From NCBI GenBank assembly GCA_024449915.1, contig JAMZAV010006683.1, positions 1 to 64,000 on the forward strand: a stretch of DNA of 64,000 bases, given 5' to 3'. Below are positions 15,681-63,590 of the stretch, in pieces. The DNA comes from Sweltsa coloradensis. Lineage: Eukaryota > Arthropoda > Insecta > Plecoptera > Chloroperlidae. Under the pieces are notes generated by a model. That model searched no databases. It saw only the letters and a list, made by a program, of their open reading frames with translations, and had not been told where the DNA came from. Every line of letters starts with the position of its first letter. Position 1 is the first letter of the stretch. A program made the translations under genes and the position numbers.

Positions 15681-15689
15681 GAGGAATGT

Positions 15690-16112
15690 TACAATTAGGA
15701 AAAGGCCAATCGGCTAGTTTAGTGTGATTGGAGAAGGGTTGACAGGTTGGGAAAGCATTGAGAACATAAAGAACATAAAACCCAGCCTGAAGGGCTGGGG
15801 CGACAAAACTTTTCACCTGCTGATGACAACTGCAGCTGATTTAAAGTTGTTTGTTAACCTAATCCACGACGCATTTTGTCCTTGCTGGGACTCATCATTT
15901 GGAGTGTGGCCACTAAAAATCAGCTAACTACATGCAACAAAACTCACAACACAGAACCAAACCCTGTGGTTTGGGCCACGCAGAAGTAAATTCTGCATGC
16001 ATGTTGTCATCATCAGCAAGGTTACTTCACACACCATTCATACTGGGGGCACACAGTGTCAGGCACAGACAGTAAGGGGGCGTTCCCTCCCAACTCCTGG
16101 TGCTTGAGACAA
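15690..16112 (-). mobile_element. Hammerhead-bearing SINE-like element, copy 1
   Basis: This aligns along its length with the left half of 44589-45457 (shared blocks: 'TGACAGGTTGG', 'CACCTGCTGATGACAACTG', 'TGTTGTCATCATCAGCAAGG', 'TTACTTCACACACCATTCAT'). The 9-bp direct repeat GAGGAATGT flanks it (15681-15689 and 16113-16121), so it is a discrete insertion. On the minus strand it carries a hammerhead ribozyme fold (15861-15907) and, near its 3' end, a CAGCCTGAAGGGCTGG hairpin. It lacks the tRNA-like T arm seen in the other copy and may be 5'-truncated. It has no protein frame. Confidence 0.75.
15861..15907 (-). ncRNA. Degenerate type-I hammerhead ribozyme
   Basis: On the minus strand the order is a stem I strand, the catalytic box, stem II (GTCC and GGAC around CAGCAA), the GAAA box, then GTC followed by GTGGATTA. 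Two core residues are changed: the first C of CTGATGA is A (reads ATGATGA), and the GAAA box reads CAAAA. Both positions are needed for cleavage in known hammerheads, so this copy should be inactive. The scaffold and the GTC cleavage triplet remain. Confidence 0.7.
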
Positions 16113-16121
16113 GAGGAATGT

Positions 16122-30700: not shown

Positions 30701-31239
30701 TAAAATGATCATTGAAAGCTACATTAAAAATTTTTGTAGAAAAGTGTTCATTTATTTTGTTCATTAGGTGTCTGGGCTTCTATACAGATGTCCAATTCTG
30801 TTGTTTCAAGTGTAAGGTTAAATCTGCTGTCAATGTTTTTTGTCGTTAAATATTCGTTTTGATATTGTTTTCTTACCTAATGGCTTTATTGATCTATTTA
30901 AGGGAACTTTTGCTATCTGAGATGGTGGTCTGATATGCCATGTCTATTACCTCTGTGTCCCATCTAATTATATGTTAGTTATGATGTTGTCTATTAATGA
31001 TGCTGAGTTATGCTACGTGTTCTAACCTAGTGGGGTAATGCGCAACTGGATGTGTGAGGTTGAAATGCGTCCTTAGGTTAATGAGTCAATGCTGGTTTGC
31101 ATTATCCTTTAAGAGATTGATGTTGAGTCACCCGTTAGTATAAGTCTTTTTTTGTTACCCATGAATATAGATGGAGAGGTTTGACAGGTTGGGAAAGCAT
31201 AGAGAACACTTATTCCTTTTATATTATTATTATTATTAT

Positions 31240-44337: not shown

Positions 44338-44543
44338 TGGGGAAATAGGAACACTTTTTAGAAACTTTCATCTTTGACTTCCTGTAAAAAGTTCTACAAT
44401 TGATATTTTTTACGATTTTTTTGTTTGACATTATTCTTTTGGCACTGTTTATAGTGTAGGGAATAGCTTGTAGAAAGCAAAGGCAAGGCATGGTAGAAGG
44501 AAAAAAATCAAATGTAAAAAGTGGTATTGTTCCTATTTACCCC
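44338..44543. mobile_element. Small TIR element, GGGGAAATAGGAACA ends
   Basis: Left end GGGGAAATAGGAACAC, right end TTGTTCCTATTTACCCC. A third terminus follows in mirror image (GGGGTAAATGGGAACAGAC at 44552), so the right side is a 15-bp-arm hairpin. No coding capacity. The related block GTAAGTAGGAACAAGCC occurs at about 55050 and 55883. Confidence 0.6.
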
Positions 44544-44757
44544 TTCATTTTGGGGTAAATGGGAACAGACAACACTGTATGGCTATTGTTACAATTAGGA
44601 AAGGGCAATCGGCTAGTTTAGTAATGATTGGAGAGGGTTGACAGGTTGGAAAAGCATAGAAACTACAGAACATAAAACCCAGCCTGAGGGCTGGGGGTGA
44701 CAAAAACTTTTCACCTGCTGATGACAACTGTAGCTAATTTAAAGTTGTTTGTTACTT

Positions 44758-44823
44758 AATCCACGCCCCCCCCCCCCCCCACCCCCCGCGTTTCGATCCT
44801 TCTGGGACTCATCAGGCGGATGG
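44758..44823 (-). ncRNA. Type-I hammerhead ribozyme, core kept, stem III disrupted
   Basis: The minus strand reads ATCCGC, CTGATGAG, TCC-CAGAA-GGA, then TCGAAACGCG, then a G-rich expansion of about 20 bases, then GCGTGGATTAAG. Both catalytic boxes (CTGATGA and GAAA) are intact. Stem I pairs ATCCGC with GTGGAT, including one G-U. One T is added in stem II. The G expansion has replaced the usual GTT/GTC cleavage triplet next to stem III, so activity is doubtful. Confidence 0.75.
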
Positions 44824-45049
44824 TGGCCACTAAAAATCAGCTTAACTAATGCAAACGAAAAGAACTAAACTCACAACACAATACACATAGGCCTAACCAA
44901 ACCTGTGTAGGGCCACGCAAAAGTAATTCTGCATGCTGTTGTCATCATCAGCAAGGTTACTTCACACACCATTCATACTGGGCACACAGTCAGCACAGAC
45001 AGTAGGGGGCTTCCCTCCCACTCTGTGCTTCAGGAGACAAGAAATCATG

Positions 45050-45110
45050 CTTACCCTGGATTCGAACCAGGACCCTAGGCAGCAGAAGAAAGGAAAGCTG
45101 CCCCTCCTGC
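45050..45110 (-). promoter_or_regulatory. tRNA-like T arm / Pol III B box at the 5' side of the element
   Basis: The minus strand contains GGTTCGAATCC, a perfect B box, within CCTGG-TTCGAAT-CCAGG: a 5-bp T stem with a 7-base loop. Upstream sequence has only a weak A-box candidate, and no full cloverleaf closes. This suggests a tRNA-derived Pol III promoter remnant heading the hammerhead element, as in SINEs. Confidence 0.55.
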
Positions 45111-45276
45111 TGTTGCTGGGCAAGGTGCTCTTCATTCAATTCTAAGAAAAAGGTTTGAGATAGGAAGGTGTAAAGTCACACACAGCACACCAGTGAGGGG
45201 CGCCTCCCTCCTAGAACTCTGTTTTTGTTGTGAGTTTTGTTTGACATGTAGATTAGCTGATTTTTACTGGCCAACC

Positions 45277-45319
45277 ATCCGCCTGATAGTTCCCATAAGG
45301 ACGAAACGCGTTGTGGATT
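45277..45319 (+). ncRNA. Type-I hammerhead ribozyme, one box altered
   Basis: Plus strand: stem I strand ATCCGC (45277-45282), box CTGATAGT in place of CTGATGAG, stem II TCC-CATAA-GGA, then CGAAAC, the short stem III segment GC, the cleavage triplet GTT, and the stem I partner GTGGAT (6 bp, one G-U). Only the CTGATGA box is damaged. The stem III segment ACGCGT is self-complementary, as in minimal hammerheads thought to work as dimers. Confidence 0.8.
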
Positions 45320-45539
45320 AAGGTAACAAACAACTTTAAATTAGCTACAGTTGTCATCAGCAGGTGAAAAGTTTTGTCACCCCCAGCCCTTCAGGCTGGG
45401 TTTTATGCTCTTTATGTTCTCTATGCTTTTCCAACCTGTCAACCCTTCTCCAATCATACTGTATAGCTTATTGGTGTGAGGTAAAAAAAAAAATGGGTTA
45501 AATAGGAACAGAACATAATACCAAGCATATGTAGAAATC

Positions 45540-45904: not shown

Positions 45905-46340
45905 TAGCACCACCTGTTATAATGTCCACGAGCCGCCACTGCATACAACTCAGTGTAGAGTCATCTGCGAACAGAGTAATATCTCACCCTTTAGTACTCT
46001 TTCTGATATGTCATTTATAAATACTAATGTTAAAGAACAGAGGGCCATTTACGGAACCTTTCGGTACACCATGTTTCATACCTTGTGCCCTTGATCTGTA
46101 TGTTTGCACTTGACCAAGTCTGTTTTCCTGCTTTAATTCTACGTATTGTGTCCGGTTCGTGAGATATGACTGTACCCATTTCAAAGCCACGCCCGTTATG
46201 CTGTAGCATTCTAGTTTTTTCATTAATATTTTTATTTTATGGTTCACACAATCGAAAGCCTTTGAAAGGTCCATAAATACGGCCATGGTTTTATTTTTAC
46301 TGTCAATATTTTCTATTACACTATTTACACTATACACTAT
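45905..46340 (-). pseudogene. CR1/jockey-like reverse transcriptase fragment
   Basis: The minus strand has about 105 codons open from 46337: MAVFMDLSKAFDCVNHK (motif A), YLTNRTQYVEL, then GVPKGSVNGPLFFNI (motif B, normally GVPQGSVLGPLLFNI). In another frame FADDST follows at about 45967 (motif C). Order and spacing fit an RT palm. The K and N in motif B and the frame break mark it as dead. It lies between the putative PSMA5 promoter and the ATG exon. Confidence 0.85.
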
Positions 46341-46394
46341 ATTGTGTAGGCCTACATATATATAAGCCTAGGTATAAGTTATAGGGTTTTGAGT

Positions 46395-56454: not shown

Positions 56455-59400
56455 TTAACAATAATATTAATAATAATAATCATCATAACTCAGTTCCAAC
56501 TATGTCGGGTTGAGTGGTGGTTTTCCACCACTATCAAGGACACGAAACTGTAGATACTAAGCTTGCCAGACTCAGTGTTTCTTCCACATCATCCAACTCC
56601 TTCTTCTCCACCAATTTACTCCACTCTCTTCTGTCCTCCCACAGCTTTACTCTTGCCACATGCTCCCACACTTCATTCCGTTTTCCAACGTCTTCTTGAA
56701 TTAATCTTTCCCATTTTTCTCTTGGCCTTCCTACTCTTCTTTTCCCCTCCTCTGCCGCTTCAAATTCTCGTCTTGGAATCCTCTCCCTGCCCATCCTTTT
56801 CATATGTCCAAACCATCTTAGACGTTCTCTTCCTAGCTTAAACTTCAATCTCTCCAATCCCAGTTCTTTCCTTATTTCATTACTTCTTATCTTGTCCATC
56901 TTTGTAACTCCCTTGATACTTCTTAAAATCTTCATTTCTGTAGCTTCCAGCTGACTCTCTTCTTTAATATAGGTACAAAATATGCCTTATACAGCAAAAT
57001 TTTACATTTTTGTGGGAACAACTCATTCCATAGTAACTTTCTCACCAATTGATAAAACCCTTCTGCTTTTTGCACTCTAGATGACACTTCCCTACACACT
57101 TTTGCATCTTTTGTCAATATACTTCCCAAATATTTAAATTCTTCTTTTTCTTCTAAGACTTCTCCACGTAGTACAATATTTTCTATGTCTCTAGGCCTGC
57201 CCTTTGTCTTCTTTTGCATACGCAAACATTCACTCTTTTTCTGATTGATTTTTAGACCAAACTCTGTAGTAACTTCGTTCCATCTGTCCACCTTCTTCTG
57301 CACTTCGCTGGCACTCTCACCCCAAATCAACACATTGTCCGCAAACACTAATGTTCTTGTGTCCCTTCCATCTGTATTTGGTTCCACTCTTCTTATAATT
57401 TCATCCATTACAACAGTAAAGAGTGTTGGAGATAACACACTACCTTGTCGCAAGCCCTCATTCACTTGAAACCATTCTGACCTACCCATATCTGTCTGTA
57501 CACAACTTTCACTCCTTTGATACGTACTTTGTATCCTGTCTATTAAACCTCTTCCCACTCCTTTTATCTCTAGACACTCCCATACTTTCTCTCTAGGCAG
57601 GCGATCGTATGCCTTCTCCAGATCCAAAAACACAATGTGCATTTCTTTCCCATTTTGCCATCTCCCCTCCATTGTCTGTCTTATAGCAAATATGGGATCA
57701 ATAGTAGACCGTCCACTTCTGAACCCATATTGTTCTTCTCTTAGATCTGTGTCATATACCTCCTTCAGTCTTAGTTCTATAACTTTCTCATAAATTTTTG
57801 CACACTGACACATTAATGTCACCCCTCTATAATTTTCACATTTCTTACGGTCACCTTTCTTAAACAGCGGTACAATTATACCTCTTTTCCAATCTTCCGG
57901 TACCTTCTTTTGTTTCCACGCAGCACTTATTACTCGAAATAACCATCTTCTTCCTTCCGCACCTGATGCTTTGATCATTTCCACAGAAATGTCATCCACT
58001 CCCGGAGCTCTACCATTCTTCATGGCTCCTAACGCCCGAGCCACCTCTTGTTCTGTTACCTCGTCTTCTTCATCTTCTCCACTTGCCTCTTTCTCTTTCT
58101 CTGCATTTAAATTTTCACTAACCTGTACATTTAGCAGATCTTTGAAATATTTCCTCCACATTTCTTGTATTTCCTGTGGGTTGTTTGTAACTTGGCCATT
58201 TTCATTTACCATGAGCTTTTGTTCTTCCCTTTCTTGTCTTTTTGTCTTAACTAGTCCGTACATAATTTTCTTATTTCCCTGGAAGTCATCTTCTAATTTA
58301 CCAGCAAATTCTTCCATTGCTTTGTCTTTCTCCTCCTTCACAATTTGTTTCACATCGGTTTTTCCGCCTACAGTACTCGTACTCATTTTCTGTAGATTTG
58401 CACTTTTCATTCTTTTTCCAAGCTAGTTTCTTCTCCCGAACTGCATCTCGTACCCTCTCGTTCCACCATCGCGTTTCTTTCTCTTTCCTCCTTCCACTGA
58501 CTCTTCCACACAGCTCTTCTGCACTTGACACAAAAACCTTCTTAAAGTTTTGCCATTCTTCTTCTATTTCTCCCACTTCATTTGTAGGTGTTTGGTCACT
58601 AATTCTTGTTAGAAACTCGTCTTGCACTATCGGAGATTGCAGTTTCCACACTTTTAGTCTTTTGTGCCGGTTCTTTATTCTCTTTTGGGTCTGTACCATC
58701 ATTCTAAACTGCCCCAACACCAGCCTGTGGTCTCCATCCAATGATATTGATGGCATTACCCTCACATCCTCAAGATTTCTCATTACTTCTTTTCCTATAC
58801 ATAGATAGTCAATTACTGTCTCTGATCTGTCTTCACCATAGCCATATCTCGTTATTTGTTGGGTTCTACGTTTCTTGAACCAACTATTTCCTATAACTAA
58901 CGAGTTTCTGGCACACATTTCTAACAATTTCTCTCCATCTCTGTTTCTTGCATCTATCCCATGTCTGCCCATAACCTCTTCAAATCCTTTTCTATCTTTT
59001 CCTATTCTTGCATTAAAATCCCCCATTACTACAATAGTATTCGATTGTCATGCTGTCATCGCACAAGATGTACATCTGTATCATTCTATCACTATGGCTT
59101 TTCACATTTACGATACTGTCTTTCCATTCAGGGCTTACCACAAATGCTACCCCATTTCTTCCCTCCACTCCTCCAGACCACCACAGTTTGTATCCTTCTC
59201 TGAGATTCTTGTTTCCACACCCTTTCCACTTTGTCTCACTGAGTCCCATTACACACAGTTTCTGTTCTTTCATGACATCAATGATCTCTTCGATTTTACC
59301 ATTAAGTGACACTATATTTATTGTGCCCACATTTATAACTTTTCCTTCTTTCCTGTGTGATGATGTTCTCCCTATTTTGTTTAGTTTTCTCCTTTGTCCA

Positions 59401-60610: not shown

Positions 60611-61009
60611 GAAGTGTGTTATATCACTTATCAGGCAAAGTAGGCCGACCTAAACCGGTCCAGTGTTAACCGGACTAGAGCCTTTGGTAACTGTCGTGTA
60701 TGTTGTCACTAACTCATAACCTCAGCATTTTGTGGTCGAAAAGTATATTATGGCATTGCATCTAAAATAAAAGAGGTAGCCTACATTGGGCAAATTCTGC
60801 GGAGATCAGATCTGAATGAATAGGCCTACCAATTAAAATATTTGGAAAGGATTGGAGATGTGTTCAGGTGGCCAACTCGGGATGATTATGTTATCGTGGG
60901 AGATGATCACATTTTTGTTGGCCCTGTAATAATGACATGATGTAACAAAATATGTGTTGAAACCTTTGCCAGAAGAAATTCAATCAGAATTTCTCAAATA
61001 CAAAATAGT
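60611..61009. other. Spacer, no gene
   Basis: No exon or repeat edge recognised. Confidence 0.4.
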
Positions 61010-62251
61010 GTTTGTGGTTGGGGAAAGGCGAGAGGAGACCAACAGTTACCTTAAAGGATGTAGGTACCGGTAGCTGCTTGAGACGAGGTGCACATATATT
61101 TATTAACAATTAACAATTCACACAAAAATGTTGAACGTTTCGGCCTACGCGGCCTTGGTCACCGACCGTTGAAGAAGAACTAATAACCAAACAAACAAAA
61201 ACTAACATTTAAACATTATTTATTTACAATTATTACAACATTATTACAACAGTAGGTGGCGGTGTGCAGGTGGGATGTCTACCTCAGATTGGGGTTAGGC
61301 TTTTGGCGCGAGCTGGTGATGATTTGGTGCGCCAATTCCCATTGTCTCAGGTGTTCCTCATTGCATGATGGGGACGACTTCACTACCCTTGTGGTGTAAC
61401 AGTTGTCAAAGTCTCTGTTGTGGGTGCCTGCATGTTGGGCCACCGGTTTCAGGTCTAGTTTTTTGACAGTGTCCTGTCTGTGCCCATTCATTCTCGTGCT
61501 CAGAGAGTTAGTGGTGAGGCCTATGTACTCGGCTGGGCATAGCTGGCACTGTAGTTGGTATATCAGGTTGGTAGTGGCACAGCTGTTGTGTTGCCTGATG
61601 GGGTAGGTCTTTCCGGTAGCTCGAGCGGTGAATGTAGTGGTGGAGGGGTGAATGGTGCAAGTTTTGCATCGGGGTCTCATACAGGGGTATGAACCCTGTG
61701 GTTGGGGTGGCTTCTCCATTTTCCTTGCGGGGCTGTGCCTCACAATATAGTCGCTGATGTTGCGAGGACGCCGGAAGTACACGCGAGGTAGGTTTAGAGC
61801 CAAATCATTGGTGAGGGCCGATGATTTCAGGATGTGCGCCCCTCTTTTCATGATCCCGTTAAGTACCTGTAGACCTGGGTGCCACTGTGTGACTAGTGGG
61901 ATGATTTGGTTGCTCGGTGGAGTGCGTGGAACGCTCGGACGGTGGATGCGTTCTAGGACTTTTTCGCGGGGGTACCCCCGAGCCACAAAGGCATTCGCAA
62001 TGCGGTGGCAATACTTCGCCAAGTCCTCTTCATTCGAGCAGATTCGACGTCCTCGAGTGGCCAGTGAGTGAGGTAGGGCTTGTTTGATGTAGTTGGGGTG
62101 GCAGCTGTCGTAATGTAGGTACTGTTGGTTGGCTTAAAGTGGACGCTGGTTTCGAGATGTCCGTCCCGGAGCTGGATGTCGACGTCTAGGAAATTAACGT
62201 AGTGGTCGGAAATTTCCCACGTGAACCGTAGGGAGGTGTGATGCACCCATA
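61010..62251 (-). pseudogene. Penelope-like element, minus copy: RT C-terminal part and GIY-YIG nuclease
   Basis: Read from 62246 down. A first frame has LRFTWEISDHYVNFLDVDIQ and a KPTNSTYITTAATP stretch, typical of the RT-C region of Penelope-like elements (F-x-W/Y-E-I-S, NFLD, KPT). A frameshift near 62065 leads to a 247-codon frame to 61279: AFVARGYPREKV, HILKSSALTNDLALNLPRVY, then a CxxCxxC-type segment (CMRPRCKTC), then the GIY-YIG domain NLIYQLQCQLCPAEYIGLT with RMNGH and a C-terminal E (EEHLRQWE). The 3'UTR continues to 61010. The upstream RT is absent. Such elements insert by a GIY-YIG cut and share an RT ancestor with telomerase. The frameshift and missing RT core make it inactive. 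Confidence 0.9.
61132..61172 (-). ncRNA. Possible decayed hammerhead in the Penelope-like 3'UTR
   Basis: The minus strand has GGTGACCAA, then GGCC-GCGTA-GGCC, then GAAACGTT. This is the hammerhead order (CTGANGA, stem II, GAAA), but the first box is changed at two positions. Hammerhead motifs are known in many Penelope-like elements. The plus copy (about 62953-62980) has lost the stem. Confidence 0.45.
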
Positions 62252-63108
62252 TCTACAGGTACTTAACGGGATCATGAAAAGAGGGGTGCACATCCTGAAA
62301 TCATCGGCCCTCACCAATGATTTGGCTCTAAACCTACCTCGTGTGTACTTCCGGCGTCCTCGCAACATCAGCGACTACATTGTGAGGCACGGCCCCGCAA
62401 GGAAAATGGAGAAGCCACCCCAACCACAGGGTTCACACCCCTGTAAGAGACCCCGTTGCAAAACTTGCACCATTCACCTCTCCACCACTACATTCACCGC
62501 TCGAGCTACCGGAAAGACCTACCCCTTCAGGCAACACAACAGCTGTGTCACTACCAACCTGATATACCAACTACAGTGCCAGCTATGCCCAGCCGAGTAC
62601 ATAGGCCTCACCACTAACTCTCTGAGCACGAGAATGAATGGGCACAGACAGGACACTGTCAAAAAACTAGACCTGAAACCGGTGGCCCAAGCACCCATAA
62701 CAGAGACTTTGACAACTGTTAAACCACAAGGGTAGTGAAGTCGTCCCCATGATTGCAATGAGGAACACCTGAGTCAATGGGAATTGGTGCACCAAATCAT
62801 CACCAGCTCGCCCAAAGCCTAACCTCAATCCGAGGTAGACATCCAACCTGCACACCGACACCTACTCACCCCAACAGCGCCTTGTATTGTAATAATTGTA
62901 AAAAATGTTTAAATGTTAGTTTTTGTTTGTTAGTTTGTTAGTTCTTCTCCAACGGTCGGTGACCAAGGGCGTTCAACGTTCAACATTTTTGTGTGAATTG
63001 TTAATTGTTAATAAATATGTGCACCTCGTCTCAAGCAGCTACCTACATCCTTTCAGTTTAAGGTAACTGTTGGCCTTTCCCCAACCACAACACTAACCTA
63101 GACGATAG
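62252..63108 (+). pseudogene. Penelope-like element, inverted partial plus copy
   Basis: Opposite-strand copy of 61010-61876. The frame 62247-62735 gives QVLNGIMKRGVHILKSSALT through NLIYQLQCQLCPAEYIGLT, RMNGH and LDLKPVAQ, then shifts, losing the HAGTHNRDFDNC segment seen in the minus copy. The 3'UTR continues to a terminus mirrored at 61010 (CTTTCCCCAACCACAA against TTGTGGTTGGGGAAAG). The pair is a head-to-head palindrome with a 375-bp asymmetric centre. Confidence 0.9.
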
Positions 63109-63590
63109 GCTCTATCTAACCATCAAATACAAAATAATGCTTTTAACGTAGGCCAAACAAGAAATGACTTTAAATCTTTATTTTAGGCCTAAGCCTAATC
63201 ATGGTTACCGGTAATTTGCTACAGCAATTGTCAATTGAGCATTACTATTAATTTGTGATACTAATAGTACCATGTTGGTTTCTAATTGCCTGAAACAATT
63301 TCTATTATATTCTGTACTTGAATTAAATTTTGGTTTGTTCTCATTTTGCCAAATTGGAAGAAAAAACAAAGTAAAAGTTGCTTTGAAGAGATTTTCCACA
63401 CAATTAAAAAGGGGTTTCATGTGAATAATCATAGTCATAGGCTATGTAATATTTTTAGTGTTTGAAAGCAGAAAATAAATGTCTAATGTTAAAAGTGAAG
63501 CTAAATGTGCCACAGTTGTTGTAAATTAACATTAATGCTAAAACCTTTATAATTAAATTGTACACAAAACCTGTAAAACATAACAAAAAC
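63109..63590. other. Spacer, no gene
   Basis: No exon or repeat edge recognised. Confidence 0.4.

What the first reader, a model, noticed from the sequence alone, without database searches (positions are those of the whole stretch)
44589..45473. SINE-like element carrying a minimal type-I hammerhead ribozyme and a tRNA-type B box
Three copies in the window (15861-15907, 44758-44823, 45277-45319) share stem I (ATCCGC with GTGGAT), a CTGATGA box, stem II (TCC with GGA), a GAAA box and a self-complementary ACGCGT stem III. Each copy has a different defect, so a majority reading is intact. One copy has a perfect B box with a closing T stem, and two insertions have target-site duplications (GAGGAATGT; ACTGTATGGCTATTG-like). 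Hammerheads are known in Penelope-like elements, retrozymes and some SINE-like satellites such as schistosome Sm-alpha. A dispersed insertion with both a tRNA-like promoter element and a hammerhead, and no protein, may be a new family. Self-cleavage and spread as small or circular RNA is inference.
Basis: partly seen in the sequence, partly recalled or inferred. Interest (0 to 1): 0.75.

Follow-up and report, generated by a model that had tools for sequence, protein, structure and literature searches.

The report
Hammerhead element riding Penelope retrotransposons
A protein-less mobile DNA carrying a self-cutting RNA motif, present in at least two thousand copies in this animal genome, ends and inserts the way Penelope retrotransposons do, which points to Penelope machinery as the engine that moves such ribozyme elements.

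Summary
In detail: three damaged type I hammerheads, a B box, two target-site duplications. The hammerheads at 44759-45318 are the inverted arms of ONE insertion (44589-45457). Elsewhere in the 1.449-Gb genome the intact form is a 962-nt unit with no recognisable gene, single, tandem or head-to-head; its hammerhead passes the Rfam cut-off, and 2223 exact intact cores exist (reversed control 0).

A SINE/Pol III reading is not supported (no tRNA match; T5 run between B boxes and ribozyme). Insertions look Penelope-like (PLE): 44 of 48 free 3' ends fall in two zones about 35 nt apart (optional tail), 5' ends scatter, TSDs are 7-16 bp in 12 of 32 loci, and 19 of 19 inverted pairs within 2 kb are head-to-head. 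The tail hairpin CTAGCC-N4-GGC recurs at PLE 3' ends of this genome. Best reading: a non-autonomous hammerhead element mobilised by PLE proteins. PLE mobilisation of animal retrozymes was proposed in print; this is anatomical evidence.

Side finding: PLEs here carry a hammerhead-like motif with core pair 3-8 swapped (G3-C8); one form occurs 643 times, its canonical counterpart 0 times.

Cleavage, circular RNA and helper protein remain inferred.

The parts
44589..45457 (-). Insertion 2: head-to-head composite, sense strand minus (main body 44589-45221 plus an inverted second arm 45222-45457)
44574..44588 (.). Target-site duplication, one copy (ACTGTATGGCTATTG)
45458..45473 (.). Target-site duplication, other copy (ACTGTATAGCTTATTG, imperfect)
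44589..44623 (-). Optional 3' tail (about 35 nt) absent from the opposite arm; holds the hairpin region shared with PLEs
44759..44821 (-). Hammerhead of the sense arm; both core boxes intact, stem III split by a G-run
45277..45318 (+). Hammerhead of the inverted arm; core damaged (CTGATAG)
44831..44841 (-). T5 run just upstream of the sense-arm hammerhead
45055..45071 (-). B box with perfect T-arm-like stem (one of two per full unit; the other is missing in this copy)
15690..16112 (-). Insertion 1: single 5'-truncated copy (U722 to U176)
15681..15689 (.). Target-site duplication of insertion 1 (GAGGAATGT), one copy
16113..16121 (.). Target-site duplication of insertion 1 (GAGGAATGT), other copy
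15862..15903 (-). Hammerhead of insertion 1, damaged in core and stem I
15689..15726 (-). 3' end of insertion 1 with the tail and the full CTAGCC-N4-GGC hairpin
31172..31208 (+). Small fragment of the same arm
61279..62735 (.). Head-to-head relic of a Penelope-like element (endonuclease-side coding pieces), a family whose 3' end is recognised by the PLE tail profile at 63089-63123

Best explanation
A non-autonomous, hammerhead-bearing satellite of Penelope-like elements (PLEs). The mobile unit is a 962-nt RNA with no recognisable gene. Tandem copies are transcribed (promoter unknown, probably not Pol III). Pairs of minimal hammerheads, whose self-complementary ACGCGU stem III can hardly close within one molecule, cut the transcript into unit lengths, perhaps later circularised. 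A PLE reverse transcriptase/endonuclease acts in trans: it recognises the zone about 140-180 nt downstream of the cut, with the hairpin CTAGCC-N4-GGC, and starts copying at one of two places about 35 nt apart, giving tailed and tail-less ends. Copying often stops early (5' truncation) and often starts from both cut strands of the target, giving head-to-head pairs with both 3' ends outward inside a 7-16-bp duplication. Shown: anatomy, ends, geometry, copy number, shared tail. Inferred: transcription, cleavage, circle, helper protein, two-strand priming.
For: Unit and tandem arrays. No gene: longest open frame in the circular unit 150 aa, antisense; five open frames of the unit (79-150 aa) match no Pfam family at E<=0.1. 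Hammerhead_1 at 41.2 bits twice in L022, cut-off 34; 2223 exact cores, control 0. Of 48 free 3' ends in 36 loci, 22 lie at U136-150, 22 at U160-185, 4 elsewhere; 48 free 5' ends are scattered, 3 of them inside those zones. An exact 7-16-nt repeat at both borders in 12 of 32 distinct loci printed (my reading). Neighbours within 2 kb among 158 of the 2223 places: 21 same-strand (17 at 963-973 bp), 19 head-to-head, 0 tail-to-tail. PLE coding hits of the same genome: 12 head-to-head, 1 tail-to-tail within 5 kb among 138 rows. PLE 3' ends show the same optional hairpin tail; a profile of 15 of them scores 19.8 bits on U133-164 against a best of 11.0 in 1000 shuffles, and its only window hits under E 1 are the window's PLE end, which was not in the profile, and the two element tails. 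Spacing from GAAAC to the tail hairpin is 123-137 nt in 11 PLE loci and 156 nt in U. Precedents: PMC11167929 (two RT start sites explain the tail; both strands cut and extended in vitro); PMC3846280 (31-bp tail, inverted pLTR, 9-bp TSD, head-to-head most frequent, a host gene moved in trans between pLTRs).
Against: No PLE whose terminal repeat matches the whole arm was found: blastn of U against 30 PLE loci gave nothing better than E 0.18, and against 20 more PLE 3' flanks only the tail zone (76% over 43 nt, E 0.004, L069 and L070; L077 E 0.16), besides three nearby U insertions or fragments. The profile was built from flanks chosen because they had a U-like hairpin (15 of 52; a sixteenth, L076, was a U insertion and was removed), so it is not a blind test. 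The hairpin alone is not unusually stable. 20 of 32 loci show no clear duplication: 13 none, 3 in TA repeats, 3 cut off, 1 imperfect. Loci L009-L038 were found with a query that ends at the 3' end, which favours copies having one. Covariation inside the hammerhead is not above shuffles, and the hammerhead is not more conserved than the rest of the unit (0.952 against 0.885-0.989 in 50-nt windows). No RNA or protein data.
Confidence: 0.83

Rival explanations
1. A metazoan retrozyme in the published sense: tandem type I hammerhead repeats living as small circular RNAs and mobilised by some non-LTR element, not specifically a PLE.
For: Protein-less tandem repeats with type I hammerheads and TSDs. 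PMC7229834 reports such repeats in many phyla, crustaceans included, and names PLEs as likely helpers.
Against: Unit is 962 nt instead of about 150-450; PLE-type tail and head-to-head arms are not described for retrozymes in the sections read; no circular RNA shown.
Confidence: 0.25
2. A tRNA-derived SINE transcribed by Pol III that happens to carry a hammerhead.
For: Two B boxes per unit, one with a perfect T-arm.
Against: No tRNA match by Rfam at E<=5 or ARAGORN; no A-box-like site at tRNA spacing; ten runs of four or more T in the unit, with T5 at U912 just before the hammerhead; 3' end shared with PLEs; tandem and inverted forms.
Confidence: 0.05
3. A foldback or miniature inverted-repeat DNA transposon, because the window copy has long inverted arms.
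For: Arms 44624-44880 and 45222-45457 are inverted repeats between imperfect duplications.
Against: Most fetched copies lack a fixed inverted pair; 5' ends scatter, TSD length varies, arrays are tandem.
Confidence: 0.02
4. A decaying pLTR satellite: the unit arose from a PLE terminal repeat and now spreads by DNA duplication only, with dead ribozymes.
For: All three window copies are damaged; the insertion at 44589 and L010 (C15816) share flanks, so at least one copy spread together with its surroundings.
Against: 2223 exact cores; 12 loci with their own, mostly different short duplications; variation in the core concentrates at the tolerant position N7.
Confidence: 0.1

Closest known systems
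Endonuclease-bearing Penelope-like elements (PMC3846280, passages read; PMC11167929, abstract and main text read)
   Same: Optional 30-40-nt 3' tail, short variable TSD, 5' truncation, tandem plus head-to-head inverted copies, hammerhead upstream of the RT start zone; tail hairpin shared with PLEs of this genome
   Different: No RT/endonuclease gene; canonical hammerhead core (C3, G8), whereas the motif found in PLEs here has G3 with C8 or A8
Metazoan non-LTR retrozymes (PMC7229834; abstract, results parts 1-2 of 3 and discussion read)
   Same: Protein-less tandem repeats with type I hammerheads and TSDs; the axolotl type also needs dimers because of a short stem III
   Different: 962-nt unit instead of 150-450; PLE tail and inverted arms; circular RNA not shown here
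Schistosome SM-alpha and W-elements (PMC8490949, passages read)
   Same: SINE-like or satellite-like repeats with minimal hammerheads with extremely short stem III
   Different: The SM-alpha-like W-element is 335 bp; no PLE tail link in the passages read
Short nonautonomous Penelope elements of heliconiine butterflies (PMC6685494, two passages read)
   Same: Short elements assigned to Penelope without being autonomous
   Different: No hammerhead or tail described in the passages read
Host gene copied between Penelope pLTRs in the rotifer Adineta vaga (PMC3846280, passages read)
   Same: Non-PLE sequence mobilised in trans through pLTR signals, with TSD and inverted pLTR
   Different: A single event with a host gene, not a self-amplifying family

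Membership tests
Penelope-like element (autonomous) | ORF with RT and GIY-YIG endonuclease | tested here: not met
   Longest open frame in the circular unit 150 aa, antisense; no Pfam match at E<=0.1 for five frames. Not an autonomous PLE; it behaves like one moved in trans.
Penelope-like element (insertion anatomy) | Two alternative 3' ends 30-40 nt apart (tail) | tested here: met
   22 + 22 of 48 free 3' ends at U136-150 and U160-185
Penelope-like element (insertion anatomy) | Tail related to PLEs of the same genome | tested here: met
   15 of 52 PLE flanks show the hairpin, chosen by motif
Penelope-like element (insertion anatomy) | Tandem copies and head-to-head inverted copies | tested here: met
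   21 same-strand, 19 head-to-head, 0 tail-to-tail within 2 kb, from 158 of 2223 places
Penelope-like element (insertion anatomy) | Short variable TSD | tested here: met
   7-16 bp in 12 of 32 distinct loci; unclear in 20
Metazoan retrozyme | Type I hammerhead in protein-less tandem repeats | tested here: met
Metazoan retrozyme | Repeat of about 150-450 bp | tested here: not met
   Unit 962 nt; 17 of 21 same-strand neighbours at 963-973 bp
Metazoan retrozyme | Linear and circular unit-length RNA in tissues | not testable with these tools
   No RNA data at hand
tRNA-derived SINE | tRNA-related head with A and B boxes | tested here: not met
   B boxes only; no A box at tRNA spacing, no tRNA match
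Hammerhead ribozyme type I | CUGANGA and GAAA boxes, stems I and II, UH before the cut, RF00163 over its cut-off | tested here: met
   41.2 bits in L022, up to 50.1 in the genome
Hammerhead ribozyme type I | Compensatory changes in the stems within the family | tested here: inconclusive
   93.6% of cells paired, but covariation not above shuffles (17 rows: 16 of the 30 variants plus L087)
Hammerhead ribozyme type I | Self-cleavage | not testable with these tools
   Needs transcripts; stem III so short that a dimer is expected (inference)

The most novel reading that the evidence does not exclude
Gene-less animal hammerhead elements are PLE parasites that keep only the helper's 3' recognition zone, and the helper PLEs of this genome carry their own hammerhead class in which the core pair C3-G8 is transposed to G3-C8 (GTGANCA ... 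GAAAC), unseen by Rfam yet structurally conserved across PLE families. Helper and parasite would then use two different versions of the same ribozyme.
Probability: 0.4. Interest if true: 0.8.

Novelty: new variant of a known kind. Interest (0 to 1): 0.62.

Why it matters
What moves protein-less hammerhead elements in animals is an open question: PMC7229834 names PLEs only as strong candidates, from co-occurrence, and PMC11722881 repeats the idea that retrozymes may be reduced PLEs. A large young family whose insertions carry the PLE tail, the PLE tail hairpin and PLE geometry turns that into a direct test: does a PLE protein prime on this RNA at two sites 35 nt apart? The almost exclusive head-to-head orientation in both the satellite and the PLEs is also genomic support for priming from both target strands, seen so far in vitro (PMC11167929). 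If the PLE motif with G3-C8 cleaves, it would be a natural form of a double change known to me only as a laboratory rescue cited in PMC11167929.

Tried and rejected
SINE/Pol III: rejected. MITE/foldback: rejected. Larger protein-coding element: rejected. The window's own PLE family as direct parent: no arm homology. Covariation within the hammerhead as proof: failed, too little variation. Higher conservation of the hammerhead than of the rest: not seen. Stability of the tail hairpin as proof: z from -0.57 to -2.18, not decisive. First tail profile held L076, a U insertion caught by the regular expression; redone without it. Host species: a mitochondrial COX1-like copy was translated and looks arthropod to me by recall only; not searched. 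One search used the wrong strand. and one search counts include overlapping loci.

Literature: searches. A search for six spellings of non-autonomous Penelope found one paper; hammerhead with C3G and G8C found only PMC11167929. Only the CC0/CC BY/CC BY-SA part of PubMed Central was searched, so absence in print is not shown. Lunse 2017, Cervera 2014 and Craig 2021 are not held; what I say of them is through other papers or recall.

Full report
1. The observation. Each window copy is damaged in its own way: insertion 1 (15862-15903) in the core and stem I, the left arm of insertion 2 (44759-44821) by a G-run in stem III, the right arm (45277-45318) by CTGATAG. Rfam therefore reports no hammerhead in the window at its cut-offs and only a weak HH9 match (20.5 bits, cut-off 52) at 45265-45335.

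2. The family in the genome. The window lies in a genome of 1,448,894,888 bases in 16,871 contigs. Rfam Hammerhead_1 gives 70 matches there, 69 over the cut-off (74 of 174,555 candidates scored); the eight that were fetched belong to this family. A search with the window element gives 143 matching pieces (40 of 3,283 candidates scored). The exact pattern CTGANGAGTCC-N3-7-GGACGAAACGCGT occurs 1106 + 1117 = 2223 times, the reversed control 0 times; the form with A at position 7 makes up 775. In L022 two units stand in tandem with Hammerhead_1 at 41.2 bits each. The unit, called U, is 962 nt from cut site to cut site. Its longest open frame is 150 aa, antisense; five open frames match no Pfam family at E<=0.1. 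Across 63-64 mapped copies the core letters keep 95-100% identity to U except position N7 (46%), the one core letter that a hammerhead tolerates (the tolerance is established knowledge). But the hammerhead as a whole is not more conserved than the rest of the unit (0.952 against 0.885-0.989 in 50-nt windows), and pair covariation is not above shuffles, as expected for a young family with little variation.

3. How it inserts. U was mapped on 36 non-redundant loci (four overlapping loci dropped). Of 48 free 3' ends, 22 lie at U136-150 and 22 at U160-185; 4 lie elsewhere. The 48 free 5' ends are scattered along the unit. So the family has a fixed 3' end in two versions about 35 nt apart, and ragged 5' ends. 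In one search, 12 of 32 distinct loci show an exact repeat of 7-16 nt at both borders by my reading; 13 show none, 3 lie in TA repeats, 3 were cut off and the window's own is imperfect. Thirty of the loci were found with a query that ends at the element's 3' end, so copies with a 3' end are favoured.

4. Geometry. From 158 of the 2223 places (100 listed and 58 further ones listed), neighbours within 2 kb are 21 same-strand pairs, 17 of them 963-973 bp apart, and 19 inverted pairs; all 19 are head-to-head and none is tail-to-tail. One tail-to-tail pair appears at 2,685 bp. PLE coding hits of the same genome show 12 head-to-head and 1 tail-to-tail pair within 5 kb among 138 rows. Head-to-head as the most frequent PLE arrangement is in print (PMC3846280, passages read).

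5. The PLE link. The window holds coding pieces of a PLE-like element at 61279-62735, head-to-head; Pfam does not name them, the assignment to PLE endonuclease is mine by recall of the motif. The genome holds many relatives (138 rows, 5519 first-look candidates). Their 3' flanks end either before or after a short tail containing CTAGCC-N3-6-GGC. blastn of U against 20 such flanks, before any selection, picked the tail zone of two of them (L069, L070: 43 nt, 76%, E 0.004), at their 3' termini. A profile of 15 tails, chosen by the hairpin motif from 52 flanks, scores 19.8 bits at U133-164, against 11.0 for the best of 1000 dinucleotide shuffles of U; in the window its only hits below E 1 are the window's own PLE end (63089-63123, not in the profile) and the tails of the two element copies. 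The fixed motif occurs in 7 of 2000 shuffles of U. The hairpin folds alike in five of five tails but is not unusually stable. From GAAAC to the hairpin there are 123-137 nt in 11 PLE loci and 156 nt in U. In PMC11167929 (abstract and main text read) the tail is the stretch between two RT start sites, internal to the RNA, and the protein cuts and extends both target strands. U has the same anatomy without the gene. No PLE whose terminal repeat matches the whole arm was found.

6. Transcription. Two B boxes per unit (U497, U694) do not make a SINE: no tRNA by Rfam or ARAGORN, no A box at tRNA spacing, ten T-runs of four or more, and T5 at U912 between the B boxes and the hammerhead (U927), intact in 48 of 50 copies. 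Pol II from an unknown promoter is the more likely reading (inference).

7. Ribozyme action. Stem III is ACGCGU, a palindrome that would leave at most a 2-nt loop; such hammerheads are known to work as dimers (PMC7229834 for amphibian elements; Lunse 2017 as cited in PMC7761336). Tandem units offer two hammerheads per transcript. Cleavage here is predicted, not shown.

8. Side finding. PLE 3' regions here carry, at the hammerhead position, a covarying motif: outer stem, GTGA-N-C-A-A, stem II, CGAAAC, closing stem. It is present in 33 of 52 flanks examined (22 distinct sequences; position 8 is C in 20, A in 2; position 7 is C 13, A 4, T 3, G 2). For five families the outer-stem arms, placed by hand, pair at 22 of 25 positions against a mean of 11.5 and a maximum of 18 when arms are exchanged between families; one family (L071) has only three pairs. 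Read as a hammerhead it has C3 and G8 exchanged for G3 and C8. Rfam sees no hammerhead there even at E<=10 in six loci. Genome-wide the form with GGCC stem II occurs 643 times, its canonical counterpart CTGANGA in the same frame 0 times (reversed controls 0). Among the 100 listed places I count by eye 11 head-to-head pairs and 1 tail-to-tail pair within 2.5 kb. Whether this motif cuts is unknown; the double change C3G/G8C is cited as partly active in PMC11167929.

9. Verdict. A real, young and abundant family: a non-autonomous hammerhead element that inserts like a PLE and shares its tail signal. It is retrozyme-like but fails the published size range; it is not an autonomous PLE since it has no gene. 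New variant of a known kind.

Noticed in passing
PLE 3' flanks: L040-L042, L044, L045, L047-L051, L054, L055, L060, L062, L068-L077, L079, L081-L086, L088; window 60700-61279 (-): Conserved hammerhead-like motif with core positions 3 and 8 swapped (G3-C8; G3-A8 in the L074-L076 family), covarying outer stem, not seen by Rfam; the GGCC form occurs 643 times genome-wide, the canonical form in the same frame 0 times. L043, L046 and others of the 52 flanks lack it; L080 has a one-letter-longer GAAAA.
   Followed up: partly
window 61279-62735: Head-to-head pair of PLE endonuclease-side coding pieces; no Pfam match.
   Followed up: partly
window 44589-45457, L010 and L030: All three composites join U~540 to inverted U879: either a mobile composite subfamily or a template-switch hotspot.
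   Followed up: no
window 44528-44551 and 45487-45510; L010, L013: Insertion 2 shares flanking sequence with L010 on both sides and with L013 on one, with inverted TGTTCCTATTTACCCC-like repeats outside it: it sits in another repeat and has been copied along with it.
   Followed up: no
genome-wide, hammerhead position N7: Subfamilies differ at N7 (T, A or C), the tolerant core position; 775 of the 2223 exact cores have A.
   Followed up: partly
L076 (C51), L001, L021, L031: Several insertions lie in TA microsatellites; in C51 a U array sits in the TA run directly behind a PLE end.
   Followed up: no
window 56932-58422 (-) and 46011-46367 (-): Reverse-transcriptase ORFs (Pfam RVT_1) of other retroelements.
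   Followed up: no
L089 1501-2592 (-), C3557: Mitochondrial COX1-like copy in a nuclear-size contig, open under the invertebrate mitochondrial code; looks arthropod by recall.
   Followed up: no
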